IMG/VR virus record: IMGVR_UViG_3300017917_001914
Coordinates: 1-64,000 of that record
Strand: one strand, 5' to 3'
Origin: a virus
DNA: 64,000 bases
How positions within the stretch are numbered: position 1 is the first letter of the stretch; each line of letters begins with the position of its first letter. Positions 6,601 to 22,229 of this stretch are shown one piece after another. The notes under the pieces were generated by a model. The model was not told the DNA's origin. It worked only from the letters and a program-made list of their open reading frames with translations, and did no database searches. A program made the translations under genes and the position numbers.

Positions 6601-8680
6601 TAATGGTGCAAATGGTAGTTCAGGTACAAGCGGAACATCAGGTTCATCAGGTACAAGTCCGGGTGGTTCTCCAGCAGTTATTATCTTAGGTGGTGGTACA
6701 TTATCATCAGTTAGATGTGGTGTAAGTAATGCTTCAACAGGAAACTGTTCCGCATCTTTAGGTGGTACTCTAAATAGTAGTGTTGGTAATTTTAGTGTTG
6801 TTGTTGGTGGTTGTTCTAATACTGCCAACGCCGGTTATTCGGTTGTTGTTGGTGGTAGACAAAATACTTCTTGTTGTTTTGGATTTATTGGTGGTGGATG
6901 TTTAAACGTACTTGTGAGTTCACCAAATTACTCATCAATTGTTGGAGGATGTAAAAATACTATTAATGCTGCTTGTTCTGTTATTGTTGGTGGTGTAGTA
7001 AATACTGTGGCTATATCTCATTCATTTATAGGTGGAGGGCAAGACCATCAAATTACAACTCAAGCACATTCAACAATTGGTGGAGGTCGAAAAAATTGTA
7101 TAACAAGTTGTGCTGGATTTATTGGAGGTGGTTTTTGTAATACAATTTCTAACAAATACTCAACAATTGGTGGTGGTATTTCTAATACATTATCAGGTTA
7201 TCAAGCGTCTATTTTAGGTGGTGCTGGTAACACATCTTCAGGTCAACAATCGGTTATTGGAGGTGGATGTTCTAATATAGTATCAGGTACTCGTTCAGTT
7301 ATTGGTGGTGGTTCTTCAAATTGTGTGACTGATACAGCATCCTCAATATTAGGTGGCGAATCTAACTGTGTTACAGGTAAAAATGGGAATGCTATTATTG
7401 GTGGATGTAAGAATTCTATTAATCAAAGTTCAGGTAATTCTAATATTGGCGGAGGTGTTTCTAATACGATAGCCGCTTCTTATAGTAGTTTAATTGGTGG
7501 TGGTTATAAAAATTATATAGCGGCAAGTCTTTGTTCTCTTATTGTTGGTGGTCGAAATCATTATATCAAAGCAAATTGTTCATTTATTGGTGGTGGTTGT
7601 GGAAACAATGTAACTGGTAACTTATCAACAATTGTTGGTGGTAGGAAAAATTTTATAAATACGACTAATTCTGTAATTGTCGGAGGTGCAGTAAATTGTG
7701 TATGTTACACTTATTCATTCATTGGTGGTGGTTATCAAAATATTGTTAATTCCTCTTGTAGTACTATTGGTGGTGGATATAGAGCATGTATTATTGGAGG
7801 TGGTTATTCAAAATTTGGAACAATTGGTGGTGGTGGGGCTAACTATATAGCAAATAGTTATTCGTCTATTATTGGTGGTGGGATTCTTAATTGTATTTGG
7901 TTAACTAGTGGTAGTAATCCGGGTAATACAGCGTGTAATAATTCAATATTAGGTGGTAAAGGTAATCATATTAAAGAAACAAATGGTTATTCTTATGTAC
8001 GTTTAAGACATAATACTATTACAGGTGGTGAAGCAAATTGTATTCGAAATATTGCGGCTAGTACCGATGTTGATGGTAATTTTATTGGTGGTGGTACTAA
8101 TAATCTTATAGAAGCAACAAGATGTTCAGTTATTGTTGGTGGTTATAAAAATATTATTAACGGAAAGAACGCTTATAACTTTAATAGTATTTTAGGTGGT
8201 AGTTATAATATAATATCAGGTAATTACTATAACTCACATATTATTGGTAGTAATCGTACTGCAAATGCTAGTAACACAACTTTCGTTAACTATTTAGATA
8301 AACAAGGTGGAACATTTAGTATTGACCACCCAAATCCGAGTTTAAGTTGTACTTTAAGATTAAATCACTCATTTGTTGAATCCCCAACTGCCGGTGATAA
8401 CTTATATAGATATATTGTTGTTACTTCAGGAGGAACAGCAACAATTGAATTACCGGATTATTTCCAATATCTGAATAAAGATGTTCAAATATGGGTAACA
8501 CCAACTGATAGTTTTGCGATTGGTTATGGTAAAATAAATGAAAGTTATACTGAAGTTACAATTTATGGTAATCAAGATGTTGAATTTAATGTTTTAATTG
8601 TTGGTACAAGAAAAGATAAAAACACTAAATTTTGGAAAGGTGTTGAAACACCTCAACCGAATAAATGTAATGATGTTTAA
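659..8680 (+). CDS. giant collagen-like / beta-roll tail fibre
   Basis: This is a 2673-residue virion fibre. Residues 1-48 form a short N-terminal segment, possibly for virion attachment. Residues 66-117 contain a carbohydrate-binding-like WKGVW...Y..GDVVYYNGSSYVA motif, as in CBM5/12-type modules. Residues 161-318 and about 1410-1557 look like C1q/TNF-type jelly rolls, and 1006-1180 is another globular insert. Between these lie long GTSGTDGTSG/GSSGANGSSG tracts (about 322-1004, 1180-1410 and 1557-2001), which are Gly-X-X and so collagen-like but use Thr/Ser/Asp instead of Pro. Residues 2001-2544 are repeated I-I/V-GGG-x-x-N units of about 20 residues, resembling YadA-type trimeric beta-roll heads and rich in Cys (about 28). 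Residues 2545-2673 form a C-terminal knob. A trimeric receptor-binding fibre is inferred. The Ser/Thr-rich tracts are candidate acceptors for the glycosyltransferases encoded downstream. A terminator follows. Confidence 0.9.
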   Translation: MANIPISQLPQAFSAYPESLLVIVNYDLVTTGQTNYIYYSALTAQFSAGTSGTSGTSGTSGTSGKSFTWKGVWSASINYIEGDVVYYNGSSYVATTTIPSGGSSPDTNFSWGLIAQAGTSGTDGTSGTSGDDGTSGTSGADGTSGTSGVNGTSGSSGTSGAGVANYYATYSSSQTQYATSANTEYIATYDTVEIENGISIIDGSKITVQYSGIYEIGYSPMVEKKLFNGDLDVNIWLKVNGNNVDRSNSVEGFINPDIKALPYVQTILQLNQGDYIEIAYSATKTGVQLTAVSGQTSPLIPAAPSIIVDIKNVGVAAVAYTSTSGTSGTRGTSGTSGSSGTSGSSGINGTSGTSGTSGSDGTSGTSGTSGTSGSDGTSGTSGTSGTSATSGTSGSSGINGTSGTSGTSGTSGTSGTTGTSGTSGTTGTSGTSGTSGSDGTSGTSGTSGTDGTSGTSGTDGTSGSSGTSGTDGTSGTSGTDGTSGTSGTDGTSGTSGTGGLNGTSGTSGSDGTSGTSGTDGTSGTSGTDGTSGTSGTDGTSGTSGTSGSDGTSGTSGTDGTSGTSGTDGTSGTSGTDGTSGTSGSDGTSGTDGTSGTSGTDGTSGTSGTDGTSGTSGTDGTSGTSGTSGSDGTSGTSGTSGTSGTDGTSGTSGTSGTSGTDGTSGTSGTDGTSGTSGTDGTSGTSGTDGTSGTSGTDGTSGTSGTDGTSGTSGTDGTSGTSGSDGTSGTSGTDGTSGTSGTDGTSGTSGTDGTSGTSGSDGTSGTSGTSGTSGTDGTSGTSGTTGTSGTSGTDGTSGTSGTSGTDGTSGTSGTDGTSGTSGTSGTDGTSGTDGTSGTSGTDGTSGTSGTDGTSGTSGTDGTSGTSGTSGTDGTSGTSGTDGTSGTSGTDGTSGTSGTDGTSGTSGTDGTSGTSGTNGTSGTSGTDGTSGTSGTDGTSGTSGTDGTSGTSGTSGSDGTSGSSGTSGTSGTSGSSGTDGTSGTSGTSGTSGTSGTTGTSGTSGLSGISAGLTYYFNESQNSDVSGYKVLSTIPSSATTQTVTTNLTGSQQNVLVSDYITPQLGFATIPAGVQRFHLHFLKQASNDDIDAYVEIQLADSTGTPIGSTITSNVALIGWVSAVIPVELVVDIVLPTTTIDPTNRMIVRLYLNNNDAVAHSVVYYTEGNSYYSFVTTSVGSVAGSAGTSGSSGTSGSDGTSGTSGTDGTSGTSGTDGTSGTSGTTGTSGTSGSDGTSGTSGTSGTSGTSGTDGTSGTSGTDGTSGTTGTSGTSGTSGTDGTSGTSGTTGTSGTSGTSGSDGTSGTSGTSGTSGSSATSGTSGSSATSGTSGTSATSGTSGTSATSGTSGTSGTTGTSGTSGSSATSGTSGSSATSGTSGTSATSGTSGSSGVNGTSGTSGTSGTSGTSGTSGSSGISPTGLVASNYVAKGYKNGSAQTIPNNTDTVVTFIDDFDPQGWITSNKFQPTIEGYYHIQVAVWWDAGSVTNNQNNIQVRKNGSTQVAIQQAQILTGSGYGQEIDIIIYFNGTTDYIEVTAFTGNPTSQNINGASSGTWITGALIVGGGSSGTSGTSGSSGTTGTSGTSGSSGANGSSGTSGTTGTSGTSGSSATSGTSGTTGTSGTSGSSGVNGTSGTSGTTGTSGTSGSSATSGTSGSSGANGSSGTSGTTGTSGTSGSSGANGSSGTSGTTGTSGTSGSSATSGTSGSSGANGSSGTSGTTGTSGTSGSSATSGTSGSSGANGSSGTSGTTGTSGTSGSSGTSGSSGANGSSGTTGTSGTSGSSATSGTSGSSGANGSSGTSGTTGTSGTSGSSGTSGSSGANGSSGTSGSSGANGSSGTSGSSGANGSSGTSGTTGTSGTSGANGSSGTSGTTGTSGTRGTSGTSGSSGANGSSGTSGSSGANGSSGTSGTRGTSGTSGSSGANGSSGTSGTSGTSGSSGVNGSSGTSGTSGANGSSGTSGTSGTSGTTGTSGTSGLSGVNGTSGTSGANGANGSSGTSGTSGSSGTSPGGSPAVIILGGGTLSSVRCGVSNASTGNCSASLGGTLNSSVGNFSVVVGGCSNTANAGYSVVVGGRQNTSCCFGFIGGGCLNVLVSSPNYSSIVGGCKNTINAACSVIVGGVVNTVAISHSFIGGGQDHQITTQAHSTIGGGRKNCITSCAGFIGGGFCNTISNKYSTIGGGISNTLSGYQASILGGAGNTSSGQQSVIGGGCSNIVSGTRSVIGGGSSNCVTDTASSILGGESNCVTGKNGNAIIGGCKNSINQSSGNSNIGGGVSNTIAASYSSLIGGGYKNYIAASLCSLIVGGRNHYIKANCSFIGGGCGNNVTGNLSTIVGGRKNFINTTNSVIVGGAVNCVCYTYSFIGGGYQNIVNSSCSTIGGGYRACIIGGGYSKFGTIGGGGANYIANSYSSIIGGGILNCIWLTSGSNPGNTACNNSILGGKGNHIKETNGYSYVRLRHNTITGGEANCIRNIAASTDVDGNFIGGGTNNLIEATRCSVIVGGYKNIINGKNAYNFNSILGGSYNIISGNYYNSHIIGSNRTANASNTTFVNYLDKQGGTFSIDHPNPSLSCTLRLNHSFVESPTAGDNLYRYIVVTSGGTATIELPDYFQYLNKDVQIWVTPTDSFAIGYGKINESYTEVTIYGNQDVEFNVLIVGTRKDKNTKFWKGVETPQPNKCNDV
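1622..3672 (+). repeat. collagen-like GTSGTDGTSG-coding repeat tract 1
   Basis: The tract is built of 9-bp units of the type GGTACTTCA, GGAACTAGC and GGTACGGAT, coding Gly-Thr-Ser or Gly-Thr-Asp. Higher-order 18- to 27-bp blocks are copied many times with drifting synonymous bases. It is a likely hotspot for recombinational length change and for assembly collapse. Confidence 0.95.
4194..4888 (+). repeat. collagen-like repeat tract 2
   Basis: It uses the same 9-bp Gly-Thr-Ser units as tract 1. Asp-bearing units fade out and GSSATSGTS units appear towards the 3' half. Confidence 0.93.
5328..6660 (+). repeat. collagen-like repeat tract 3 (GSSGANGSSG type)
   Basis: The dominant unit is GSSGANGSSGTSGTTGTSGT, repeated about a dozen times. 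Asn has replaced the Asp of tract 1, so each tract expanded from its own founder unit. Confidence 0.93.
6690..8290 (+). repeat. Cys-rich IGGGxxN beta-roll repeats
   Basis: There are more than 20 imperfect units of about 60 bp. Each encodes a hydrophobic strand, then GG or GGG, then two variable residues and Asn. The pattern resembles trimeric-autotransporter head repeats. The many Cys residues at unit boundaries are unusual for a tail fibre. Confidence 0.85.
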
Positions 8681-8761: not shown

Positions 8762-9796
8762 ATGAAATTATGTGTTATAACTAATTACCAAAATAAAGGG
8801 TATATTAATGAAATTATTGCTTTTGATAAAATTTTAAATTCTTTGAGTATACCTCATAACGATGTTTATAATTTTAACTTACCTAATATAACTTACCAAA
8901 TAAATAAAACCTACACACACGCTTTAATATTTTTAGATTACAAAATTAGTAGTATTGAACTTTACAAACAATTTTTTAAAGAACTACAAATACCAAAAAT
9001 TTTTATAATAGATTCAATACCTCATCATAATAAAGAACTTAATGATGAGTTTATTAAGATAAACGTTAATGGGATGGTAAATAACTTTTGTGGATTACCA
9101 ATTAACTATCAGTTATTAATTTACGACAATTATGCCGATGGGTTTATATTTTTTAATGATAATGATGTAAATTTATTTCAAAGTTATTATCAATTAACCA
9201 AACCCAAACCCGCTTTAGTAATATCCCCACCTTTAGGTGATATTAAGGATATTAAAATAAATTTTGATAATATGACACCCAATAAAAATATTGGGTTTAA
9301 TGGGTATCCTTCATATCAATCCGGAATGTTTAATTTATTAAATCTAATTAAATTTAACCCAAAATATAATTTAAATTTATATGGTGCACATGGAAGAGAT
9401 GAGGTTTTAAATGAAATGATAGCTAACCATTTAACCTCAACAAGTAATAGGATTAGATTTAAAGGTAGATTGAAAAACGATGAAAAATTCTTTAAAGAAA
9501 ACTACATATATTCTAACTTATCAATATATGATACTTTTGATTATTATACTTTTTTTAGTTTATTAAATGGGTCAGTTCCAATTATTAGTAATACTTCGGG
9601 AACATCTTTATTTTTTAAATCGTATCCATTCATTGTTAATAATACGGTGGACTCAATGTCTAATGTGTTAGAAGTGATTAATACAACTTCTGTTAATGAC
9701 ATGAAAGAAATTTTAAATAATGCTCTTGAGGGTATTAAACATTTAAACAATGACAATGTTAGTCAACAATATATAAAATTTATAAATTCATTGTGA
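8762..9796 (+). CDS. GT-B-type glycosyltransferase (GT4-like)
   Basis: This is a 344-residue protein whose C-terminal half has the look of a GT4/GT-B donor-binding domain. There is an NIGFNGYPSY stretch, then strand-turn segments (LNLYGAHGRDE, RIRFKGRLKNDEKF) and SIYDTFDYYTFFSLLNGSVPIISN, which matches the place in GT4 enzymes where the acidic/Gly region contacts the nucleotide-sugar. The N-terminal half is less conserved. It is probably cytoplasmic and transfers a hexose-like sugar to an unknown acceptor. It lies between the fibre gene and a GT25-type gene, with its stop overlapping the next start (TGATG), so the two should be translationally coupled. Family level is moderately sure; donor and acceptor are unknown. 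Confidence 0.65.
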   Translation: MKLCVITNYQNKGYINEIIAFDKILNSLSIPHNDVYNFNLPNITYQINKTYTHALIFLDYKISSIELYKQFFKELQIPKIFIIDSIPHHNKELNDEFIKINVNGMVNNFCGLPINYQLLIYDNYADGFIFFNDNDVNLFQSYYQLTKPKPALVISPPLGDIKDIKINFDNMTPNKNIGFNGYPSYQSGMFNLLNLIKFNPKYNLNLYGAHGRDEVLNEMIANHLTSTSNRIRFKGRLKNDEKFFKENYIYSNLSIYDTFDYYTFFSLLNGSVPIISNTSGTSLFFKSYPFIVNNTVDSMSNVLEVINTTSVNDMKEILNNALEGIKHLNNDNVSQQYIKFINSL

Positions 9797-11127
9797 TGAA
9801 TAAACAATCAACATTAGGATTTGATAAGATATACGTAATAAATTTAAAACGTAGACCTGATAGAAAAGAGAACTTAATTAAAACCCTTCCGGGTCTTGAT
9901 TTAACATTTATTGAAGCGGTCGACGGTAATGAATTATCCGTTGAACAGTTAATAAAAGAAAAAAAACTTAACAAGTCATTTTTTGACCCTTGGGGTAAAG
10001 TGACTATGGGAATTTTTGCTTGTGCATTATCCCACAAAAAAGCGTGGGAACAAGCTTTAACAGATGGTGTTGAGACGGCATTGTTTTTAGAGGATGATGT
10101 GTATTTGACAATTCCTGTTTTAGAAAATGGTAATTTTACCCCTGAATATCAATCTATATTTGATGATATTCAAGAATACGATTGGGACTTGGTTCATTTA
10201 GGTAAAAAGACATCAGGACAAAGTGGTATTGATGTTAGTAAACATTTGGTGATTCCAAAATATAATACAAATTATAATGGTGCTCATTCGTATATTGCAA
10301 CAAGAGATATGATAAAAACAATGTCGGAAGAATATTGTCCAATTAGATATGCTGCAGACATTTATTTAGAACAATTTTACAATACTCATAATACTTTCAC
10401 ATTAAGTAAAAATTTGTTTAAACAGATTAGTGATAACTTTAGTGCGGAAAACGCTGACTCTGACACATATTACAATGAATATAGAGAAGGTGGTGGACGT
10501 GTTGGTCTTTCATTTGATGAAAATGGTAATGTTTTAAATAAGAAAATTGTGAACTACCTAAAACAACCTAAAGATATTATTGATAGATATGTTGAGTTAG
10601 TTTTAGATAAACCAAACTTTGGTATACAAAAATTTAACAAACCAAACTTTTTTGGAATAACAAAATTATTAACTTTTCTTTCTACTGAATTAGGTGATAA
10701 TGAAACGATGGTAGAGATTTATTCCCATTTTGGTGAACTAACTTTTTTCTTTGGTAGTTGTGGATTATTTAACAATATCTACGCAATTGACCCTTTATGT
10801 GGTGAAGATAGATTTAATATTGAAACCGAGACTACTTGGGACGATGTTAGAGTTGGATTCCACAGCAATACATATCATTTTAGAAACATATCTCATATTG
10901 AGAAAACTCCGGATGAGGTCTCTGAAGATTTTAGTAATGTCTCGTTTTTATTTATTAATAATCGAAACAATGGTGATGTAACATCATTAATTTCTCAATA
11001 TTATGATAAGATTAAAGATGACGGATATATTGGGGGTGATTGTTATGAAAAAATCAACATACCTAACGCTAAAGTATTTGATAACGGATATTGGGTCATT
11101 AAAAAAAATGAACTCTATTTAAATTAA
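9796..11127 (+). CDS. GT25-type glycosyltransferase fused to a class I methyltransferase-like domain
   Basis: The N-terminal ~200 residues match the GT25 (LPS/collagen glycosyltransferase) family: DKIYVINLKRRPDRKENLIKTL at the start, a conserved ALSHKKAWEQAL segment and ALFLEDDV as the acidic metal/nucleotide motif. Residues about 280-440 look like a Rossmann methyltransferase of the FkbM or Methyltransf_24 type (TMVEIYSHFGELTFFF, NIYAIDPLCGE, VSFLFINN, YYDKIKDDGYIGGDC). In that domain the usual Gly-rich SAM loop is altered to YSHFGE, so activity is uncertain. The ATG at 9796 overlaps the preceding stop; a GTG one codon upstream is possible but less likely. Some GT25 members glycosylate collagen hydroxylysine. 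The neighbouring collagen-like fibre makes it a plausible acceptor, but this is inference. Confidence 0.75.
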   Translation: MNKQSTLGFDKIYVINLKRRPDRKENLIKTLPGLDLTFIEAVDGNELSVEQLIKEKKLNKSFFDPWGKVTMGIFACALSHKKAWEQALTDGVETALFLEDDVYLTIPVLENGNFTPEYQSIFDDIQEYDWDLVHLGKKTSGQSGIDVSKHLVIPKYNTNYNGAHSYIATRDMIKTMSEEYCPIRYAADIYLEQFYNTHNTFTLSKNLFKQISDNFSAENADSDTYYNEYREGGGRVGLSFDENGNVLNKKIVNYLKQPKDIIDRYVELVLDKPNFGIQKFNKPNFFGITKLLTFLSTELGDNETMVEIYSHFGELTFFFGSCGLFNNIYAIDPLCGEDRFNIETETTWDDVRVGFHSNTYHFRNISHIEKTPDEVSEDFSNVSFLFINNRNNGDVTSLISQYYDKIKDDGYIGGDCYEKINIPNAKVFDNGYWVIKKNELYLN

Positions 11128-11153
11128 AAAACCCTCATACGAGGGTTTTTTTT
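11126..11153. terminator. bidirectional terminator between convergent genes
   Basis: AAAAACCCTC, loop ATAC, GAGGGTTTTT lies exactly between the convergent stops at 11127 (+) and 11152 (-). A/T runs on both sides allow it to act on both strands. Confidence 0.85.
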
Positions 11154-12027
11154 ATTGTTGGTCTATTGCGTCTACTATTTTCTGAATATCAAAAACTTCG
11201 TATAAGTCATTATAAGGTATTGAACTGATGTCTTGGAATAAAAGATATTTAGAATAATGTGGATGATTTAAATCAGGTGTTTTTGTTGGTTCATTTGCCA
11301 TAATATTATTATGAATATCAAATCCAAATACTTTAGGATTAGTCCCAACCCAAGTAACAACTGATGGTAAATTTAAAGCTGTGGCGATGTGCATTACACT
11401 ACTATCAATCAATAATCTTTTTGTTGACATACTTAACAACACCGCAATACTTCTGAAAGAATCTAACGCTTGGAATGTGTTTTCATAAGTAATTTGGTCT
11501 TCTCTCTTAACGTGTAAGATTGCATAATCTTTAGCATAATGATTAATAATATCTTGCATTATTGGTTGAGGAATATCTCTTGTCCAACTATACTTTAAAG
11601 GTTGATTAAATGCCCCACCATGTGGTTGAATAACCATAATTGGTTTGTCTAATTTGTAAAACGATTCAAAGTATTGTTTTTCAGCTTTAGTAATAAACAA
11701 CTCCGGTTTTTCTCCATCATAATTTAAACCATACATTTCACACCATAATTGAATAAGATGTTTTTCTTCGGTAATATAACTTGAGGTTGTGTATGGGTCA
11801 GACACAAATACTTTAGCTTCTTTACCCATAATGTATTTTTCATATATTCCACTCATTGTTTCATGAGTTAATACTTTATTAACATTTGGATTACCAATAA
11901 AGACATCCGGATAACTACTAACAACAATTATGTTAGCTTTACTATATTGTTTTTTTATAGATTTTAATACTGCGGTTGCCATGATATTCTTACCAAGTCC
12001 CCCATCGATTTGAAATATTACATTCAT
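11152..12027 (-). CDS. GT9-like (heptosyltransferase-family) glycosyltransferase
   Basis: This 291-residue protein has the GT-B plan of ADP-heptose:LPS heptosyltransferases. FQIDGGLGKNIMATAVLKSIKKQ is the N-terminal Gly-rich acceptor-side loop, PDVFIGNPNVNKVL follows, and the donor-side half ends in LLIDSSVMHIATALNLPSVVTWVGTNP, the S-G/S-x-x-H-x-A region of the family. It is the last gene of the minus-strand operon, starting one base after the DUF2061 stop. The donor may be ADP-heptose or another nucleotide sugar taken from the host. It is at or slightly under the usual length for the family (about 320-350). Confidence 0.75.
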   Translation of the reverse strand: MNVIFQIDGGLGKNIMATAVLKSIKKQYSKANIIVVSSYPDVFIGNPNVNKVLTHETMSGIYEKYIMGKEAKVFVSDPYTTSSYITEEKHLIQLWCEMYGLNYDGEKPELFITKAEKQYFESFYKLDKPIMVIQPHGGAFNQPLKYSWTRDIPQPIMQDIINHYAKDYAILHVKREDQITYENTFQALDSFRSIAVLLSMSTKRLLIDSSVMHIATALNLPSVVTWVGTNPKVFGFDIHNNIMANEPTKTPDLNHPHYSKYLLFQDISSIPYNDLYEVFDIQKIVDAIDQQ

Positions 12028-12028
12028 A

Positions 12029-12247
12029 TTATTCTTTATTTTCTTTTAATCCAAATTTTATCCATTTATACCACACTCTTTCATGTAGGAAATATATTAA
12101 TGGTTTTATACATAATTCTGTCAATCCAATACTACCTGAAACCCAAAAATTACCTGTAAATAGGTAAGAGATTAAACAGGTTTGTAATGTCCCTAACATT
12201 CTATAACTTATGGCTTTACCTACGTGTCTTTTTACTTCTACTTTCAT
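12029..12247 (-). CDS. DUF2061 small membrane protein
   Basis: A 72-residue protein matches DUF2061: a basic N-terminus (KRHVGKAISYRMLGT), a hydrophobic segment TCLISYLFTGNFWVSGSIG, a second hydrophobic stretch and the ending ERVWYKW. In bacteria this family is often found beside or fused to APS kinase, and here cysC lies two genes upstream. A role in holding the sulfate-activation enzymes at the membrane is possible but unproven. Its start abuts the stop of the upstream gene. Confidence 0.8.
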   Translation of the reverse strand: MKVEVKRHVGKAISYRMLGTLQTCLISYLFTGNFWVSGSIGLTELCIKPLIYFLHERVWYKWIKFGLKENKE

Positions 12248-12480
12248 TATCTAACAATTACTACATCACCTTTCCAAATTACCTCATTTGCTGTACAGCT
12301 AAGGTGGTGTTTATCCACATCTGTGTTTCTTGATGGGTCATATACAATATCTCTTGTTGTATGTGGTGGTATTTCAAAAATTACATTTGATGCAACGTTT
12401 TCAACACCATCAATTAATATTCTCCAAAACAAGTGATTATCATCACAAAGTGTATTATATCTTAATTTAACATCAATCAT
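12247..12480 (-). CDS. small unknown protein of the sulfation operon
   Basis: A 77-residue protein that I cannot assign. It is predicted to be beta-rich (LFWRILIDGVENV, NVIFEIPPHTTRDIVYD, CTANEVIWKGDVVIV), with a DKHHLSC stretch that could bind metal. It overlaps the nucleotidyltransferase stop by four bases and ends where the DUF2061 gene begins, so it is co-translated with them. Its tight coupling suggests an accessory to the adjacent nucleotidyltransferase or APS kinase. Confidence 0.6.
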   Translation of the reverse strand: MIDVKLRYNTLCDDNHLFWRILIDGVENVASNVIFEIPPHTTRDIVYDPSRNTDVDKHHLSCTANEVIWKGDVVIVR

Positions 12481-12887
12481 AACTTACCTTCTTTTTTCAT
12501 TTGTTCTCTAATCTTTGTTGCTGATATATCGTGAATTTCTTGTGGTGGAATATGTTCGATAATATCATATCCAACACCTCTACCAAACTCAATTGAACAA
12601 ATATCAGGAATAACCATCACTTTAACTCTTTCTTCTTCTGAATAAAAGTTTGAGATGTTCTCTCTAACTTGTTCTGCGGTAAACGGATTTTTCTCGTCCG
12701 GTTGTATATCTCTTATACAGATTAAAACATTCTTACCCTCATCCATTGCTCTTTTAAACAATTCTTGGTGTCCCAAATGTAATGGTTGCCATCTACCAAC
12801 AAACATCGCAAATTGACCATCCTTTGATGGTAATGATGAACCTACGTGTATTTTTTTACTCCAATTTTCCATTTTGTTTATATTCAT
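12477..12887 (-). CDS. NadM/cytidylyltransferase-like nucleotidyltransferase
   Basis: This 136-residue protein belongs to the HxGH nucleotidyltransferase superfamily. It shows FVGRWQPLHLGHQELFKRA (the GRFQPxHxGH motif), then NPFTAEQVRENI, close to the NPFTxGER of NadM-type NMN adenylyltransferases, and near the C-terminus ISATKIREQ (the ISxTxxR motif). It is shorter than cellular NadM (about 170). The reaction is transfer of an AMP or CMP moiety from NTP, with an unknown acceptor here. Its 32-base overlap with the APS kinase start region shows tight coupling, so a sulfate or sugar adenylylation role must be considered. It lacks the ATP-sulfurylase core motifs I would expect. Confidence 0.75.
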   Translation of the reverse strand: MNINKMENWSKKIHVGSSLPSKDGQFAMFVGRWQPLHLGHQELFKRAMDEGKNVLICIRDIQPDEKNPFTAEQVRENISNFYSEEERVKVMVIPDICSIEFGRGVGYDIIEHIPPQEIHDISATKIREQMKKEGKL

Positions 12888-13314
12888 AAATTTTTTGAGT
12901 TATTTTTCCTATTGAAATTTGTTCTATAACATTTGTTGTATCCACATCCACAAAGTTTTCTGTTGGTGGTTCATAGTTAGATACGTGATAATCTTCTCTA
13001 CCTCTAATATCTTGGGTGTGAACATAAAACTCTAAAACATTATGTTTGTTTTTAAATTCATCACGTTGGTCTTTATAAGGTGATACTAATGAAACTATCA
13101 CATCAAAACCTTTAGAATCTAAAAATAATGAGATATCTTGAGCTTTCTCAATATTTTTTCTTCTTCCGGCTTCAGAGTAATCTTTGTTTTGAAAGACATC
13201 TCTAATATCGTCCCCATCTACAAGTATTGTATTACTTGGGTGTAGATAATCTTTAAGTTGTTTTGCTAATGTGGTCTTACCTGCTCCGGGTTGACCTGTA
13301 AACCAATATATCAT
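12856..13314 (-). CDS. cysC: adenylylsulfate (APS) kinase
   Basis: This 152-residue kinase would phosphorylate APS with ATP to give PAPS, the sulfate donor of sulfotransferases. The Walker A loop is FTGQPGAGKTT (residues 5-15), LVDGDDIRD follows at 31-39, then YSEAGRRKNIEKAQ at 46-59 (the family's FSxxDRxENIRR region) and VIVSLVSPYKDQRDEF. The C-terminal lid after HTQDIRGRED is shorter than in bacterial CysC, and the FTGID segment is diverged to YHVSNYEPP. The gene sits between the sulfotransferase and the nucleotidyltransferase in one operon, which supports local PAPS supply for sulfation. No obvious ATP sulfurylase is in the window, so APS would come from the host. Confidence 0.85.
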   Translation of the reverse strand: MIYWFTGQPGAGKTTLAKQLKDYLHPSNTILVDGDDIRDVFQNKDYSEAGRRKNIEKAQDISLFLDSKGFDVIVSLVSPYKDQRDEFKNKHNVLEFYVHTQDIRGREDYHVSNYEPPTENFVDVDTTNVIEQISIGKITQKIYEYKQNGKLE

Positions 13315-13326
13315 AATTAAAATTTT

Positions 13327-14148
13327 TTATACATATCCAAAATAATCATAAAACCATTTATAATGATTTTTAATGTTCATTGAAATTTCATAACCTAACA
13401 CTTCCATATAATCATCCGGTTTTCTTTCAAATTTAGGTCTTAATTGATGGTCACCAAATATACCATGTATCCTATCATCTTCATGTGTTAATTGAGAAAT
13501 ATTCTCAAAGTCATGTCCTTCATAATATGGTAATTCTAAATAATTGTAAATTCTACTCATTTCTTCTTCCGGATTACTCATTAAATCTTCATAACGAATG
13601 AATAACATTTTTTCGGCAATACCTTGTTGTATAATGTCCTGTAATCGGTCAATTGCAACACCAACAGGAATACCACTCGCCCAAATATCAACACGTTTGT
13701 TTAAGGTTGTGCCAACTAATTGAGATGGGTTTTGAATCCCATTTTCTCTATGAGGATTTTTACGGAAATTTTTTTCCATAGAAGAATAGATGGCTCTAAT
13801 GTCTCTAACCATACAAATAATTTTTGGTTCAAAGTCTAACATTTCTAATAAACCATAATTAATACCCCACTCTCTACTTTTATCCATAACGATTGGTTTA
13901 TCTGTTAATCGTTTGAAATACCCTTGCATTCCGTCTTTACAGAAATCAACAAACGCTTTGGTCATTTCATCTTGGTCTTGGGCTTGAAAAGCTTGAGAAT
14001 GATTGTAGTTGTTTTTACATGCAATAACAAAATCAACTAAACCGGATGTTGGTGTAGAATAAATTTCAGGGTTTTGTGCTAACAAGTTTTGTATAAGTGT
14101 ACTACCACTTCTTGGTAGTGATGAGTTAAAAAATATTTTTTTCATCAA
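13327..14148 (-). CDS. PAPS-dependent sulfotransferase
   Basis: This 273-residue enzyme would transfer sulfate from PAPS to a hydroxyl or amine acceptor. The N-terminal FFNSSLPRSGSTLIQNLLAQNP is the 5'-phosphosulfate loop of the sulfotransferase superfamily (SxPRSGST). Around residues 115-130 the segment MVRDIRAIYSSMEKNFR is the 3'-phosphate-binding RDxRxxxxS motif, and VMDKSREW fits the preceding strand. LFIRYEDLMSNPEEEMSRIYNYLELP is the usual RYEDL region. The length is normal. It lies 12 bases upstream of cysC in the same operon. Likely substrates are sugars placed by the neighbouring glycosyltransferases, either on virion proteins or on a host surface glycan. Confidence 0.88.
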   Translation of the reverse strand: MMKKIFFNSSLPRSGSTLIQNLLAQNPEIYSTPTSGLVDFVIACKNNYNHSQAFQAQDQDEMTKAFVDFCKDGMQGYFKRLTDKPIVMDKSREWGINYGLLEMLDFEPKIICMVRDIRAIYSSMEKNFRKNPHRENGIQNPSQLVGTTLNKRVDIWASGIPVGVAIDRLQDIIQQGIAEKMLFIRYEDLMSNPEEEMSRIYNYLELPYYEGHDFENISQLTHEDDRIHGIFGDHQLRPKFERKPDDYMEVLGYEISMNIKNHYKWFYDYFGYV

Positions 14149-14149
14149 A

Positions 14150-14827
14150 TTAAATATTATATATGTGTATTATTACTTCTGTGTAATGTTCTATGAATTC
14201 ATCTGTCATTAAATTCCATTTAATGTTTACACCATCAATAGAGTATACCTCAACATTTATAAAATATTGTAAGTAAGTATTTCTAAAGTGTTTGAATTTT
14301 TCTTTTAAAATAGGGTCACCTAAATGCCATTCTCCGGCAATTTTTTTAACATTATTTTTAATGAATTCAAAATTTTCATCGTTAAAAATATCATATTCAC
14401 CACCTTCACAATCTGTTTTTAAAAAATTGATAGTTTCAAGATTGTATAGTTCACAAAGTTTTTTAAAGGTTATACCTTCCATTTGTTTTGCACCACCATA
14501 AATGTAATCACCATCAGTATATGTGTCGGTATTTGAAATACCTTTCAATATTGGTGTAACCGGATAACCGATTGTATTTTTAACTAATGTTGGAAATTCA
14601 TATTCACTTGGTTCAATACAATAAACGTGTTTTGGTTTTTTGGATAAAATACTATAAGTAAATGGCCCAACACTTGCACCAAAATCAACAACAATATCAC
14701 CTTCAGAAACTTCAAAGAATTTTTCATAAATTCTTTCAACAAATGTTTCTTGTGTAATTAGTTCTTTATGAAAGAGACCTTCTTCGGTCTGTCCCATCCA
14801 ACCCCAATCAAAATTATTGTAATCCAT
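14150..14827 (-). CDS. FkbM-family methyltransferase
   Basis: A 225-residue SAM-dependent O-methyltransferase. VVDFGASVGPFTYSIL is motif I, VYCIEPSEYEFPTLVKN is the acidic end of strand 2, and NFLKTDCEGGEYDIF is the FkbM-typical LKID-x-EG-x-E motif (here TDCEGGE). FkbM enzymes often methylate sugar hydroxyls. Its ATG overlaps the stop of the 1447-residue gene by one base, and its stop is one base from the sulfotransferase start. Capping of glycans by methylation is the likely role. Confidence 0.85.
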   Translation of the reverse strand: MDYNNFDWGWMGQTEEGLFHKELITQETFVERIYEKFFEVSEGDIVVDFGASVGPFTYSILSKKPKHVYCIEPSEYEFPTLVKNTIGYPVTPILKGISNTDTYTDGDYIYGGAKQMEGITFKKLCELYNLETINFLKTDCEGGEYDIFNDENFEFIKNNVKKIAGEWHLGDPILKEKFKHFRNTYLQYFINVEVYSIDGVNIKWNLMTDEFIEHYTEVIIHIYNI

Positions 14828-17800
14828 TATAGTAAATGTTGAATTTGTTGTATTACCATTTCAGGTGTTATTGATTTATGACATTCAAATTGTTTTTCAG
14901 TTCCTTTATTAACAGGACACCAATTCCAATCACCCTTATCAAAGGTAAACTCAGGTTTATTCCAACATCCGTTACAAACTGAATGATTTACAATTCTAGT
15001 ACAATTAAACATAAACTCATGCTCCTCATTTGTAAAGTTAGAAATCATAACAACTTGTTTACCTAATCCCCAAGCTAACCAAGATAAACCGCTGGATAAT
15101 CCGATAAAAAATTCACTATGGTGAATAACATTCATTGTATGATGAATTGATGTATTTTTAATCTTGTTTGCATTTTCAAACGGATTATCTTCTTTGGATA
15201 CGTTTATTACTTTATATCCTAAACCATGAAGATAGTTGATTAATACTTGCCAACCTTCTCTTGTCCAAAATTTACAACCTGCCGTTGAATTAGTTGCTAT
15301 GGTAACATATTTCTTTTGATAAGGTCTTGGGTGAATAGTGTTATGTATATTAGGTTTAATCTCTTTAAATTCTAATCCTAATATGTTGGTAATTGTCTGT
15401 TGTAATGGGATTGTGTTTGGTAATACAGGTTCTTTATCGGTATTGTAAAACCATCCGATAGTATACATAGCATAAAGATTATGTACTGTTGTTCCCGGAA
15501 CAACAAATTCAATTTCAGAATATTCATTTTCAAATAAATGATTCCAAAAAGTGGATACAATAACTTTACAATTATGTTTCTTTTTAAATTCTAAAACATA
15601 TGGAATCCAAGCAATTGAATCCCCTAAAGATTTACTATCGAAAGATATGTAAACTCTTTTATTTGTTAAGTCCATCGTGTTATCATAGATTACCTCATTA
15701 TCTCGAGTAACAACTGCTCTCCATTTGGTGTAATAACTTCTATTTAATTTAACCCAATGATTTGGTTTTATGGTATTTTCATAATGACAAACACCTTTTT
15801 CATCAAAGAATTTTACATTATAATCTTTGTCTCCCGTTCCTTTTATTTCTAAGAATGGTTCTTTAACAAAATGTTGAAATATTTGTACTTCATTATCTAT
15901 CATCGTTTGTTTTTTAATTGGTTCGTTTAATATTTTTTGGTATAACTCGTAATTTTTTTCTGCAAACTCTTTTATGGTATATTTTGGAAATTCATAATAA
16001 ATTTCATCTTTAATTAAATCCAAAAGTTGGTTTTTCATATCAAAAATATCTCCGGATATTTGTTTAATGTAAGGTGTGAACATATCCATATATTGAGGTA
16101 AGTTTCTTGCTAAAATTTTTAGTCCATAAGAAATTCCTTCTCTTAATACCAGTGGATTACATTCCCAAGTTGAGTTAAACATTAGAACATCAGCAGCACA
16201 CATAAATTCACTAACATTATCCTTTTCACCCCATACTCTAACATTGCTTGGTAAATCATTCATAATTGGCTCCCAATATTCTTGGAAGTTAGGTGCTTGA
16301 TTTCCTATGAAATGAAATTCTAATTCTGGGTAAATACCCTCAACCAATCTTGCAATTTCAACACCTTCACCTTGATTTTTACCTGATGTCCACAATCCAA
16401 CATTTATGATGTGAATTTTGTTTGGGTCTAAACCTAACTTTTCTTTATTGGTTTCTTTAGATATTACTATTGTTGGGTTATATGGAAATTCAATTACTTC
16501 ACCATATGATGGCATGTTCATAAAGGTCACTTCTTTATGGAAAGGAGAACAAAACGCATATGCTTCAGGATGGAATATTTTTTCACTATCCGGTTGAAAT
16601 ATTACATTATGACAAGTTTCAACAACTCTCCATGTTCGGTCATTTTTATAAATAAAATTCATTAAGTCATTTGATAGTTTGTTGTGAGCGTCAAACGCCT
16701 CAATCATTTCATCTAAGTGAATTACATCAAAATAATTCTCTTCAATAATTTTCTTTAACTCATTTTTATCTTGACCTAATGTCCAATAATGTGTTGGTGG
16801 TATTAGTTCTTTGATTTTATTTCTTTGTACCACATAATGGTCACTATGGTTTGAATATTCAACAACAAATAGTTCTACCTTCTCACTATATAAACCTAAT
16901 AATGATTCGATTCGTTTTAATAAGAATGATGGCATTCCTCCGGTTGATAGGTGTGGTGCCAAAAATAAAACTCTAATTTTTTCTTTATGATGATTTTTTA
17001 TTTTAGATATTATTTTACCCATTTCTAAAATGTTTTTTTCACCGTGAATAAATAATAAGTCATCTTTTTTATTTGGTATTTTAACCCATAAACTTTCTTC
17101 ATTAATATTATAGTTTGAATAGATTTTATCTATCAATTCTAAATTTCCATTAGCATAAATGTAAGGTAATCCATCAAATATTAATTTTTTCCATAATAAA
17201 ACATTTAAGATAGTTTCTTCATTATATGCCGCATAATATGGAATATCATTTAATACTTCAGGGTGAATACACATTTGATACCACTCATAAAGAAAATCAG
17301 TACATTTTTCATTGGCAACATAATAACCTGTCTGTCTATATTTTTGTCTAACATATTGATTAACATTAAATAATTCACACGCCGGATGTTCTAATGTTGT
17401 CGACATATCTTCTCTAGTCATTGCACCACCTCTTTCACCTATGTGTAGAAAATCATAAATTCCCTCAACAAAATATGGATAATCTTTTGTGTTATCATAT
17501 AAGTCAAAAATTTTATCAACATATGGTGTTGCAATGGAATCACAATCAACAAATGCAACCATTTTAGAGTATTTAGACAATACATCTTTAGTGATTAAAG
17601 GTTTTTGTACTAAAATATTATATATGGTTTTGTTAGTTCTATTAATGTAAAAATTATCACCCTCTTGAATATATCGTTCCGTGTTATCGTCGACTAAATT
17701 TAAATTCCACATTATGGTTGCAACATCTTTAATTCCAACCATTTTGTTTGAGTTAATAAGGTATAAAAATATTGGTAAGTCACTATATTCTCGGATTGAT

Positions 17801-19170
17801 TTAATACACATTTTAGCAACATCAAAATAATTTTCTGTGGCATATAGAACATAAGCTTTCTCTACCTTGTCTTTAATGATTAAAGGTTCTCTTTTTGGGT
17901 ACGAAGTATTAATAAGATTATGGTGGTGTATTTGAGTTGACATATATTGTAACCCAATTTCGTTTTCTAATAATAATTCTCTAACCGGTGAATTAAATTG
18001 GTTTGTTTTGTATTTTGATAATAATTCAATAATACCTTTGCTATAAGCAATTGGGCCGGTAACCCTCAATACGGTTTCTTTATCTGACCCCCCAATATAA
18101 TTTTTAATATTTTCTTTAACAATTTCAATTACTCGATGTAAAAATGGATGTTTTGGTCGACATATTATATGCCAATTTTGAAACTCACCAAACTGATATT
18201 TTAATTCATCCGCCCAATCCAAACCTTCCCAATGTGTTAACAGATACTCATCGGTCGGTAATAATGTTTCTTCCAATGGAATTGTGGTACAACTTTTAAT
18301 ATCTAAATAAACACCACCAACCTTATACATTAAAAGGTATCTAAAAAAATCAGATTTTGCTGACCCATAATTTGGATTAATACTTAAATAAAGATTTAAA
18401 GTTTCTTCATCATAATTTTCTTTAATAAAATTAAGACAATCTTCATCATTATAAAACCTGTATTCAAAAGTAGGGTTCATATCTTTTAACCTTTGAACCA
18501 CCTCACTTATTTCAGTTGGTAAATCATTAGTTTTATATGTTTGATGTATTACTCTAGGTATTAGAGGTTTCATTAATGTAATATCACTAATGTGTTTAAT
18601 AATTTGATATTCAGGTAATTCCGATATTAATTTATCAATTTCAACTTTGTTTGAAACACCATCGTGATATTCTAATGTTATTTTGTTTGGGATTGGAAAT
18701 GAATGTTCTTTACAATAGTTTAAAAAATCTCTAAAGATGATGTGGTCATGACCTTCAGTGTCAATTTTTAAATAATCTACCGACCCAACATTATAGGTGT
18801 CAATTAATGTTTTCCAACTAATTGTTGGTACGTTTTCTATGGTAACCAAACTATTGTATAATTCTTCACCTAATTCTTTAATTGCAAAAGGGTGGGGATT
18901 ATTGATTGAGTTACTTCCTCTAACCCACCAAGGTAAATTATTTTCCTCTATTTTCCAATCATCAATGTAGTAGACATCTACTTCACCATCTGTAGTAGAT
19001 AACGCCGCTTGGACTTTAATTACATTCTGTTTATTGGGTAATCTATTTATGTAATATTTTATTGGTTCAATACTAATACCGATTGTATCGTCATTTGCGG
19101 TTTCAATTAATGTATCAAAATCTGAAGTACCTATTTCAATAAAATCGTAATGTTTGAGGTTTAACGACAT
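14827..19170 (-). CDS. multi-domain glycosyltransferase: FkbM-like, GT32, GT-A, GT4 and Aah/TibC-type heptosyltransferase
   Basis: This 1447-residue protein looks like five enzymes in one chain. Residues 1-200 are FkbM-like (GISIEPIKYY, VDYLKIDTEGHDHIIF). Residues about 203-430 are GT32 (IPRVIHQTYKTNDLP, GSAKSDFFRYLLMYKVGGVYLD); the second Asp of the usual DxD is Lys (DIK). Residues about 440-700 form a second GT-A domain with AFVDCDSIATPYVDKIFDL. Residues about 730-1085 are GT4-like (VLFLAPHLSTGGMPSFLLKR, HIINVGLWTSGKNQGEGVE, FNSTWECNPLVLREGISYG). Residues about 1150-1447 resemble autotransporter strand-loop-strand O-heptosyltransferases: EFFIGLSSGLSWLAWGLGKQ, then CxxC-x15-C-x11-C, like the cysteine metal site of TibC, and KQFECHKSIT. 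It is first in the minus-strand operon. A processive assembly of one glycan on a protein is inferred. Confidence 0.8.
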   Translation of the reverse strand: MSLNLKHYDFIEIGTSDFDTLIETANDDTIGISIEPIKYYINRLPNKQNVIKVQAALSTTDGEVDVYYIDDWKIEENNLPWWVRGSNSINNPHPFAIKELGEELYNSLVTIENVPTISWKTLIDTYNVGSVDYLKIDTEGHDHIIFRDFLNYCKEHSFPIPNKITLEYHDGVSNKVEIDKLISELPEYQIIKHISDITLMKPLIPRVIHQTYKTNDLPTEISEVVQRLKDMNPTFEYRFYNDEDCLNFIKENYDEETLNLYLSINPNYGSAKSDFFRYLLMYKVGGVYLDIKSCTTIPLEETLLPTDEYLLTHWEGLDWADELKYQFGEFQNWHIICRPKHPFLHRVIEIVKENIKNYIGGSDKETVLRVTGPIAYSKGIIELLSKYKTNQFNSPVRELLLENEIGLQYMSTQIHHHNLINTSYPKREPLIIKDKVEKAYVLYATENYFDVAKMCIKSIREYSDLPIFLYLINSNKMVGIKDVATIMWNLNLVDDNTERYIQEGDNFYINRTNKTIYNILVQKPLITKDVLSKYSKMVAFVDCDSIATPYVDKIFDLYDNTKDYPYFVEGIYDFLHIGERGGAMTREDMSTTLEHPACELFNVNQYVRQKYRQTGYYVANEKCTDFLYEWYQMCIHPEVLNDIPYYAAYNEETILNVLLWKKLIFDGLPYIYANGNLELIDKIYSNYNINEESLWVKIPNKKDDLLFIHGEKNILEMGKIISKIKNHHKEKIRVLFLAPHLSTGGMPSFLLKRIESLLGLYSEKVELFVVEYSNHSDHYVVQRNKIKELIPPTHYWTLGQDKNELKKIIEENYFDVIHLDEMIEAFDAHNKLSNDLMNFIYKNDRTWRVVETCHNVIFQPDSEKIFHPEAYAFCSPFHKEVTFMNMPSYGEVIEFPYNPTIVISKETNKEKLGLDPNKIHIINVGLWTSGKNQGEGVEIARLVEGIYPELEFHFIGNQAPNFQEYWEPIMNDLPSNVRVWGEKDNVSEFMCAADVLMFNSTWECNPLVLREGISYGLKILARNLPQYMDMFTPYIKQISGDIFDMKNQLLDLIKDEIYYEFPKYTIKEFAEKNYELYQKILNEPIKKQTMIDNEVQIFQHFVKEPFLEIKGTGDKDYNVKFFDEKGVCHYENTIKPNHWVKLNRSYYTKWRAVVTRDNEVIYDNTMDLTNKRVYISFDSKSLGDSIAWIPYVLEFKKKHNCKVIVSTFWNHLFENEYSEIEFVVPGTTVHNLYAMYTIGWFYNTDKEPVLPNTIPLQQTITNILGLEFKEIKPNIHNTIHPRPYQKKYVTIATNSTAGCKFWTREGWQVLINYLHGLGYKVINVSKEDNPFENANKIKNTSIHHTMNVIHHSEFFIGLSSGLSWLAWGLGKQVVMISNFTNEEHEFMFNCTRIVNHSVCNGCWNKPEFTFDKGDWNWCPVNKGTEKQFECHKSITPEMVIQQIQHLL

Positions 19171-19273: not shown

Positions 19274-20350
19274 ATGCAAGTAATTGAAATAACAAGTTTA
19301 TCCGGTCATTCCCCATTTAATATCTCAATATGTGATATAACATTAACTTATTGTTATGTGGTAGCAACCGGTGTTGTATCAGTTCCTCCTATATTAGAAT
19401 TACCGATACCGGTTCAATTAGAAGGTGCTCAACAAATTATAGTTAAAGTTGTTGACTCAATTGGTTGTCAAGAATTACTTTTACAGAGTTGTCCGGGAAC
19501 TCCAACTCCAACACCAACTCAAACCCCAACCCCAACACCTACAAATGTAATCATCTGTAATTGTATTTCATTCAAAAATACAACTTCAGGTAATTTAAAT
19601 TTTAGTTATACTCAGTGTGATGGTACAATATTTAATGGAGATGTTCAATCAGGAACTACCTTATATTATTGTGGTAGATTACCATCAGCGGATGTTGGTG
19701 TTGATATAACAATTTATGAGGTATGTTTTGATAATACTTGTCCTGATTCAGTTTTAACTCCAACACCAACACCTACTCAAACATCAACTCCGACACCAAC
19801 TCCAACACAAACATCAACTCCAACGACAACACCTACGCAAACACCAACGCCTACTGAAACTCCAACATCAACACCAACTGAAACTCCAACATCAACACCA
19901 ACTGAAACTCCAACATCAACTCCGACACCAACACCTACGCAAACACCAACATCAACGCCAACTGAAACTCCAACGTCAACACCAACTGAAACACCAACAT
20001 CAACACCAACTGAAACTCCAACATCAACGCCAACTGAAACTCCAACGTCAACACCTACACCAACACCAACGTCGACACCAAATCCAAATTGTTATTATTA
20101 TGACGTAACAATAAGTGGTACAGATTTAGCGGCGTCAACAGGTAATTCTTCATACCCTAATAATACTGTTTTCGTTAATTATACGGATTGTTTTGGTGGT
20201 TCTGTGTCAACACCTTATACTGTTGCGGGGACTTATTTTAATGATATTTGTGCTGATGATACACAACCAATAGTTGTCTTATATTATCAAAATGATTTGG
20301 CTTATTTAACTATAAGTAGTTTTGTGACCCAACAAGGTAATTGTCCGTAA
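19274..20350 (+). CDS. Pro-Thr repeat surface protein, long
   Basis: This 358-residue protein starts with a ~75-residue beta domain ending [22 protein letters not shown], which lines up with the same point in the 140-residue protein near the left end. A short PT linker follows. Next is a Cys-bearing domain of about 70 residues ([12 protein letters not shown]...[13 protein letters not shown]...YYCGRLPS). A ~110-residue PTPTET/STPTPT rod follows, and last comes a second Cys-containing domain ([12 protein letters not shown]...[10 protein letters not shown]...NDICADD). The two Cys domains resemble each other and may be a duplication. No membrane segment is seen. It lies between the glycosyltransferase operon and a GT60-like gene. 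An exposed rod or fibre decoration, perhaps glycosylated on Thr, is inferred. Confidence 0.78.
19755..20085 (+). repeat. ACNCCAACNGAAACNCCAACNTCA tandem repeat (Pro-Thr rod)
   Basis: Units of about 24 bp encode TPTETPTS and are repeated at least eight times with only synonymous drift (ACACCAACTGAAACTCCAAC). Confidence 0.85.
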
Positions 20351-21663: not shown

Positions 21664-21666
21664 TTT

Positions 21667-22227: not shown

Positions 22228-22229
22228 TT

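What the first reader, a model, noticed from the sequence alone, without database searches (positions are those of the whole stretch)
14827..15750. Aah/TibC-type autotransporter O-heptosyltransferase domain in a phage, beside a beta-roll fibre
The last ~300 residues of the 1447-residue protein show FFIGLSSGLSWLAWGLGKQ, a CxxC-x15-C-x11-C pattern and KQFEC, which I recognise from the autotransporter strand-loop-strand O-heptosyltransferases. Those enzymes carry a cysteine-bound metal and decorate autotransporter passenger repeats. The phage fibre has YadA-like beta-roll repeats and Ser/Thr tracts, so a parallel substrate is present a few kb away.
Basis: partly seen in the sequence, partly recalled or inferred. 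Interest (0 to 1): 0.75.

Follow-up and report, generated by a model that had tools for sequence, protein, structure and literature searches.

The report
Phage branch of Aah/TibC protein heptosyltransferases
Hundreds of aquatic viruses of bacteria carry their own version of an enzyme that bacteria use to attach the sugar heptose to surface proteins, here fused to further sugar- and methyl-transferring modules next to a very long spike-like fibre gene, which suggests that these viruses coat parts of their own particle with elaborate sugars.

Summary
Residues 1115-1445 of the 1447-aa protein (window 14836-15828, minus strand) hit NCBIfam TIGR04414 (Aah/TibC O-heptosyltransferase) at 272.8 bits (cut-off 200), and TibC itself at E=1.6e-48. 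The iron-finger Cys spacing is identical to TibC's. AlphaFold2 gives a TibC fold (TM 0.91). It is not an isolated oddity: two scans of IMG/VR found 257 and at least 599 relatives. In 132 distinct phage domains the catalytic Asp, Thr/Lys/Trp donor residues and all four Cys are invariant. Two features shared by nine bacterial enzymes differ: the adenine-contacting Arg is kept in only 4/132, and the dodecamer-forming hairpin is 3-10 residues shorter. Phage and bacterial enzymes separate on a fully supported branch. The phage domain is usually fused to a GT4, and often to further GT and methyltransferase modules. In nine loci (eight distinct) it overlaps genes for heptose-1-phosphate adenylyltransferase and, in eight, heptose-7-phosphate kinase. 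Collagen-like fibre genes lie nearby in 24/36 loci, against 0/16 control loci. I found no paper describing it, though one UniProt phage entry is auto-named Aah/TibC. Most likely it starts an O-glycan on virion fibre Ser/Thr that the fused domains extend; substrate and donor are untested. New variant of a known kind.

The parts
14827..19170 (-). 1447-aa five-module enzyme: methyltransferase - GT32 - GT-A fold GT - GT4 - Aah/TibC-like heptosyltransferase
14836..15828 (-). Aah/TibC-type O-heptosyltransferase domain (residues 1115-1445); structural unit with N-terminal beta-barrel extends to about 15885
   Evidence: TIGR04414 272.8 bits; phmmer to TibC 4rb4 E=1.6e-48; AlphaFold2 pLDDT 91.4, Foldseek TM 0.91 to 4rap
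14881..14976 (-). Iron-finger equivalent: Cys1399, Cys1402, Cys1418, Cys1430
   Evidence: one-to-one with TibC Cys339/342/358/370; invariant in 132/132 phage domains
15619..15621 (-). Asp1184, equivalent of TibC catalytic base Asp110
   Evidence: 132/132 phage
15271..15285 (-). Thr1296 and Lys1300, equivalents of TibC phosphate-binding Thr226/Lys230
15079..15081 (-). Trp1364, equivalent of TibC heptose-binding Trp305
15136..15138 (-). Thr1345 where TibC has adenine-contacting Arg286; just upstream in the protein the beta-hairpin thumb is shortened by 10 residues
15922..16968 (-). GT4 domain (residues 735-1083), the commonest fusion partner of the phage TibC domain
   Evidence: Pfam PF00534
16993..17850 (-). 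GT-A fold glycosyltransferase domain with an invariant D-x-D (residues 441-726)
   Evidence: AlphaFold2 pLDDT 88, Foldseek GT6-like E=1.7e-5, TM about 0.5; invariant D102/D104; no Pfam hit
17851..18570 (-). GT32-type DXD sugar-transfer domain
   Evidence: PF04488 E=3e-10
18574..19170 (-). FkbM-type methyltransferase domain
   Evidence: PF05050 E=8e-10
14150..14827 (-). Separate FkbM methyltransferase, start overlaps the end of the big gene
   Evidence: TIGR01444 over cut-off
13327..14148 (-). Sulfotransferase
   Evidence: PF13469 E=2e-18
12029..13314 (-). APS kinase-like, CTP_transf_like nucleotidyltransferase and DUF2061 genes: probable sulfate-activation genes
11152..12027 (-). Separate generic GT9-like protein
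   Evidence: PF01075 22.3 bits, no TIGR04414 hit
9793..11127 (+). GT25-family glycosyltransferase
   Evidence: PF01755 E=2e-21
659..8680 (+). Collagen-like fibre protein, 2673 aa; candidate acceptor
   Evidence: PF01391; 451 GXY triplets with 772 Ser+Thr
19274..20350 (+). Thr-Pro-rich repeat protein, divergent from the big gene; second candidate acceptor
   Evidence: sequence; no family hit

Best explanation
The domain is a phage-lineage Aah/TibC-family protein O-heptosyltransferase. It uses a nucleotide-activated heptose (most likely ADP-heptose, from the host here, phage-activated in some relatives) to put the first heptose on Ser/Thr of a phage protein, most likely the repetitive collagen-like or Thr-Pro-rich fibres encoded beside it. 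The fused GT4, GT-A and GT32 domains then lengthen that glycan and the FkbM domain methylates it, with the neighbouring sulfotransferase/APS kinase possibly sulfating it. Shown: homology, fold, conservation of catalytic and Cys sites, domain fusions, gene linkage. Inferred: heptose as the sugar, donor nucleotide, acceptor, and order of sugar addition.
For: TIGR04414 over cut-off; TibC is the only PDB sequence relative and the best structural match, TM 0.91 against about 0.5 for GT9 enzymes. Asp110, Thr226, Lys230, Trp305 and four Cys equivalents are invariant in 132 phage domains. In nine loci (eight distinct) the TibC gene overlaps by 1-4 bp a gene whose best NCBIfam match is heptose-1-phosphate adenylyltransferase (TIGR02199), followed in eight of them by a TIGR02198-like heptose-7-phosphate kinase; seven more loci have the adenylyltransferase within about 2.1 kb; 0 of 80 control loci have either. 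LR756504, which carries the domain, also has GmhA over its cut-off. Collagen-like genes within the flanks: 24/36 loci against 0/16 UvsX control loci, p=3e-6. The window's cluster also holds GT25, sulfotransferase, APS kinase and a second FkbM gene.
Against: No biochemical data. Arg286 of TibC, whose Ala mutant loses or nearly loses activity, is replaced in 128/132 phage domains, so donor handling differs in some way. The kinase and adenylyltransferase hits are below NCBIfam equivalog cut-offs; adenylyltransferase-like genes also occur in 39 phage records, mostly cyanophages, though only 4 phage records carry the TibC domain. None was found in G000 itself (a fragment). No autotransporter or AIDA repeat is present as acceptor. 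Fibre linkage could reflect only a shared tail-module position.
Confidence: 0.55

Rival explanations
1. Same fold and protein-linked O-glycosylation, but a different donor: another nucleotide (CDP-, UDP- or GDP-heptose) or a different sugar.
For: Arg286, the adenine contact, is lost in 128/132 phage domains and kept in 9/9 bacterial ones; CDP- and UDP-heptose exist and their roles are unknown (PMC11573728).
Against: Heptose-contacting Trp305 and phosphate-contacting Lys230/Thr226 equivalents are invariant; where the phage has its own adenylyltransferase gene, none of the legible motifs has the Arg directly before STT that marks CTP/UTP-using enzymes.
Confidence: 0.2
2. The enzyme modifies a host surface glycan or host surface protein during infection (superinfection exclusion or receptor masking) rather than a virion protein.
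For: Known roles of phage glycosyltransferases include host serotype change (cited in PMC12619734); some relatives carry other polysaccharide genes (G002).
Against: No lipid-carrier or flippase-type gene was recognised among the cluster proteins tested; BAHT enzymes act on proteins; loci are linked to phage fibre genes.
Confidence: 0.15
3. Ordinary GT9 lipopolysaccharide heptosyltransferase acquired from a host.
For: Weak PF01075 hit; a separate GT9-like gene lies at 11152-12027.
Against: TIGR04414 over cut-off, iron-finger Cys, beta-barrel domain, TibC TM 0.91 against about 0.5 for WaaC/WaaF.
Confidence: 0.03
4. Part of a DNA hypermodification pathway that glycosylates modified bases.
For: Phage glycosyltransferases often act on DNA; thymidylate synthase-family genes occur in 6/13 related records, which does not discriminate.
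Against: The solved, characterised homologue (TibC) acts on protein; nothing in the cluster was recognised as making a hydroxymethylated base; position next to fibre genes.
Confidence: 0.04

Closest known systems
TibC / Aah (BAHT family, NCBIfam TIGR04414; PDB 4RAP/4RB4)
   Same: Whole fold including N-terminal beta-barrel, catalytic Asp, phosphate- and heptose-binding residues, four-Cys iron finger with identical spacing
UniProt A0A6J5SVC1 'Glycosyltransferase Aah/TibC' (uncultured Caudovirales phage) and A0A7S9XE01 (Virus NIOZ-UU157)
   Same: Same domain in long phage/virus proteins, TM 0.94-0.96; shows that an automatic name already exists
   Different: Name only; no paper on these was found
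Viral NDP-heptose biosynthetic enzymes (Tang et al., Science 2024, as summarised in PMC11461863 and PMC11573728)
   Same: Viruses encode working heptose-activating enzymes; the phage kinase/adenylyltransferase pairs found here look like them
   Different: That work left the viral role open; here such genes sit in apparent operons with a heptosyltransferase
Mycobacteriophage virion glycosylation (Freeman et al. 2023, cited in PMC12619734)
   Same: Phage virion proteins carrying glycans
   Different: No Aah/TibC-type enzyme is mentioned where it is cited; the paper itself is not held, known here only through PMC12619734

Membership tests
BAHT / Aah-TibC (TIGR04414) | HMM score above curated cut-off (200 bits) | tested here: met
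   272.8 bits for the window; 15/16 records searched over cut-off, the miss being a Clostridium genome; stand-alone L277 protein 273 bits
BAHT / Aah-TibC (TIGR04414) | GT-B catalytic fold with N-terminal beta-barrel as in TibC | tested here: met
   AlphaFold2 pLDDT 91.4; Foldseek TM 0.91/0.82 to 4rap, 370 columns
BAHT / Aah-TibC (TIGR04414) | Catalytic Asp110, Thr226, Lys230, Trp305 | tested here: met
   D1184, T1296, K1300, W1364; 132/132 phage domains
BAHT / Aah-TibC (TIGR04414) | Arg286 contacting the adenine of the donor | tested here: not met
   Thr1345 in the window; Arg in 4/132 phage against 9/9 bacterial domains
BAHT / Aah-TibC (TIGR04414) | Four-Cys iron finger | tested here: met
   Sequence and spacing identical, 132/132; metal content and 3D distances not testable here; pLDDT 70-82 in that loop
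BAHT / Aah-TibC (TIGR04414) | Beta-hairpin thumb giving the dodecamer | tested here: not met
   24 aa in the window against 33-34 in 9 bacterial enzymes; Phe265/Val266 tip absent in the window; other phages 24-25 or 30-31 aa
BAHT / Aah-TibC (TIGR04414) | Autotransporter/AIDA-repeat substrate encoded with the enzyme | tested here: not met
   No PF03797 or PF16168 match in 19 phage records; E. coli control rings
BAHT / Aah-TibC (TIGR04414) | Heptosyl transfer from ADP-heptose to protein Ser | not testable with these tools
   needs enzyme assay or mass spectrometry
GT9 LPS heptosyltransferases (WaaC/WaaF) | Best match to GT9 models/structures | tested here: not met
   PF01075 22.9 bits; WaaC/WaaF TM 0.44-0.57 against TibC 0.91

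The most novel reading that the evidence does not exclude
Aquatic phages have evolved a cytoplasmic, modular protein-glycan assembly line: a conserved heptosyltransferase starts the glycan on virion fibre Ser/Thr, an adjoining GT4 adds the second sugar, and swappable glycosyltransferase, methyltransferase or pyruvyltransferase modules build lineage-specific outer sugars, in some phages fed by phage-encoded heptose activation. The phage enzyme works without the TibC dodecamer and with altered nucleotide recognition.
Probability: 0.35. Interest if true: 0.85.

Novelty: new variant of a known kind. Interest (0 to 1): 0.68.

Why it matters
It would place protein O-heptosylation, known from bacterial adhesins, in a very large set of environmental phages, and offer a testable answer to the open question of what viruses do with the NDP-heptose enzymes reported in 2024. 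The modular architecture suggests that phage surface glycans diversify by domain swapping. The natural loss of the adenine-contacting Arg and the shortened dodecamer hairpin give a comparative set for dissecting how TibC-family enzymes recognise donor and substrate.

Tried and rejected
Genome-contig scan for bacterial relatives returned one short, irrelevant match, and that Clostridium genome has no TIGR04414 hit, so bacterial sampling rests on plasmids. Generic GT9 identity rejected. 'YadA-like' fibre repeats not supported by Pfam. DNA-modification test by thymidylate synthase family uninformative. Idea that loss of Arg286 means CDP/UDP-heptose donor weakened: no legible phage adenylyltransferase motif has the promiscuity Arg. 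GmhB-like phosphatase search negative in 16 records. Whole-record collagen proximity test gave only modest support (Fisher-combined p=0.007, related records not independent); the UvsX control was stronger. Adenylyltransferase-like hit in G002 set aside by reading its sequence and surroundings (more like a glycerol-3-phosphate cytidylyltransferase in a polysaccharide-type gene set). First-pass statement that the domain is always C-terminal dropped after distant relatives showed C-terminal methyltransferases. A few calls failed on bad coordinates or handles.

Full report
OBSERVATION. The ORF at 14827-19170 (-) encodes 1447 aa. hmmscan gives TIGR04414 'autotransporter strand-loop-strand O-heptosyltransferase' over residues 1115-1445 at 272.8 bits against a curated cut-off of 200, while generic GT9 scores 22.9 bits. 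phmmer against the PDB finds only TibC (E=1.6e-48). 102 of the 300 paired residues are identical, and D110, T226, K230, W305 and Cys339/342/358/370 of TibC pair with D1184, T1296, K1300, W1364 and Cys1399/1402/1418/1430. The functional roles of the TibC residues are from PMC4358343. The exact Cys spacing occurs once in the protein and in 0 of 2000 shuffles. An AlphaFold2 model from a 49-sequence alignment (pLDDT 91.4, pTM 0.89) matches TibC at TM 0.91, E=5e-32, with GT9 enzymes far behind. The iron-finger loop is among the least confident parts (pLDDT 70-82), and distances between the Cys could not be measured.

WHERE IT IS. The window belongs to a 99-kb IMG/VR virus record. A relative with a 98% identical domain sits on a 318-kb contig (L004), so this looks like a jumbo phage fragment. 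INPHARED holds only four: LR756501/LR756503/LR756504 and Microcystis phage Mel-JY01, where the protein is labelled 'methyltransferase FkbM'. One UniProt phage protein is auto-named 'Glycosyltransferase Aah/TibC'. Literature searches found no paper describing such phage enzymes; the library lacks most subscription papers. Aquatic jumbo 'moraphages' have four core orthogroups of putative glycosyltransferases whose target their authors leave open (PMC12619734); whether these include this protein was not tested.

WHAT IS CONSERVED AND WHAT IS NOT. In 132 distinct phage domains the Asp, Thr, Lys, Trp and all four Cys are invariant. Arg286 (adenine contact) is Arg in 4/132 (otherwise Thr 67, Val 42, Ile 8, Leu 7, Ala 4), against 9/9 in bacterial enzymes. 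The hairpin region is 24-25 or 30-31 residues in phages and 33-34 in bacteria. A 98-row tree separates bacteria from phages with SH-aLRT 100; the window's type (short hairpin plus Thr) is one group of 33 (SH-aLRT 98). The root is not inferred, it is a quick tree, and bacterial sampling is limited to Proteobacteria plasmids and TibC.

ARCHITECTURE. The window protein reads FkbM methyltransferase - GT32 - GT-A fold - GT4 - TibC. Across relatives the domain occurs alone (about 385 aa), as a GT4-TibC core (about 700 aa), and with added GT-A, GT2, GT32, pyruvyltransferase or several methyltransferase modules; some distant members add a C-terminal methyltransferase and one has two TibC domains. A conserved core with variable outer modules fits a glycan built outward from a conserved first sugar; that reading is inference.

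HEPTOSE SUPPLY. In nine loci (eight or fewer distinct sequences; L261/L262 have the same gene geometry and scores as L255) the TibC gene overlaps by 1-4 bp a gene best matched by heptose-1-phosphate adenylyltransferase. In eight of the nine this is followed by an overlapping heptose-7-phosphate kinase-like gene; in the ninth, L275, no kinase was detected. Seven further loci, including four of the window's own clade, have the adenylyltransferase within about 2.1 kb; no control locus has either (0/80). Counted on distinct domain sequences, 15 of 131 TibC loci carry the adenylyltransferase or the kinase. Scores are 95-108 bits for TIGR02199 (cut-off 181.5), well above the cytidylyltransferase alternative (50-66 bits). 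Further members carry GmhA (LR756504, over cut-off) or a near-complete heptose kinase (LR756501, 306 bits). Similar adenylyltransferase genes occur in cyanophages, nearly all without the TibC domain, so they are not specific to it. Viruses were recently reported to encode functional NDP-heptose enzymes with unknown purpose (PMC11461863, PMC11573728). No such gene was found in the window's own record, so the host would have to supply the donor here.

CANDIDATE ACCEPTOR. The fibre at 659-8680 has 451 Gly-X-Y triplets, 274 of them GTS, with 772 Ser/Thr in those stretches. Collagen-like tracts occur near 24/36 TibC loci of at least 15 kb against 0/16 around the phage recombinase gene (p=3e-6), and collagen matches occur in 15/16 records searched. 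No autotransporter barrel or AIDA repeat was found. Thr-Pro and poly-Thr proteins are alternative acceptors. The same cluster has a GT25, a GlcNAc-type GT, a sulfotransferase, an APS kinase and a second FkbM.

VERDICT. A real, widespread phage branch of the Aah/TibC family. It keeps the catalytic and metal-site core, lacks features tied to adenine recognition and dodecamer assembly, and is embedded in multi-enzyme glycosylation proteins. 'Autotransporter' should not be carried over to its name. The mechanism offered is the best-supported reading but unproven: heptosyltransferase identity about 0.75, virion substrate about 0.6, full scheme 0.55.

Noticed in passing
L241:5926-8202, L251:1802-4081, L255, L263, L264, L277:5923-8199: Overlapping gene triad TibC - heptose-1-phosphate adenylyltransferase-like - heptose kinase-like; kinases are short (about 247 aa) and both enzymes score below the equivalog cut-offs, so they may be a distinct phage subfamily.
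   Followed up: yes
L103:4486-5988, L104:5226-6755, L113:5575-6710: A cupin gene precedes the adenylyltransferase/kinase pair (or the kinase alone in L113); role in sugar metabolism unknown. The cupin identity was tested only in L103; in L104 and L113 it is inferred from position and sequence likeness.
   Followed up: partly
L196:4039-7764: Phage protein with two TibC-like domains around a GT4 domain.
   Followed up: no
window 12029-14148: DUF2061, nucleotidyltransferase, APS kinase and sulfotransferase genes in one run: a possible phage sulfation set beside the glycosyltransferases.
   Followed up: partly
window 6746-8677: C-terminal part of the collagen-like fibre has about 25 GG..N repeats of period 15-16, rich in Cys; weak sub-threshold similarity to an ice-binding beta-roll family.
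   Followed up: partly
window 20416-24587: Further transferase-like genes: PF11397 GlcNAc transferase (related to enzymes acting on hydroxyproline of Skp1, from memory), DUF3431, HtrL_YibB, and two ORFs without family.
   Followed up: no
window 8762-9796: 344-aa ORF between fibre and GT25 gene with no Pfam or PHROG hit; position suggests a glycosyltransferase.
   Followed up: no
L101:8084-8653 (LR756504): Huge phage encodes GmhA above curated cut-off; the next gene is a calcineurin-like phosphoesterase that might stand in for the missing GmhB phosphatase.
   Followed up: partly
L105 (G002 65000-75000): Phage gene run with carbamoyltransferase-like, transketolase-like, purine nucleoside phosphorylase-like and epimerase-like genes (read from sequence, not tested), resembling a polysaccharide or sugar-nucleotide pathway.
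   Followed up: no
L112:12360-12878 (LR756501): RelA/SpoT-like gene in a 735-kb phage.
   Followed up: no
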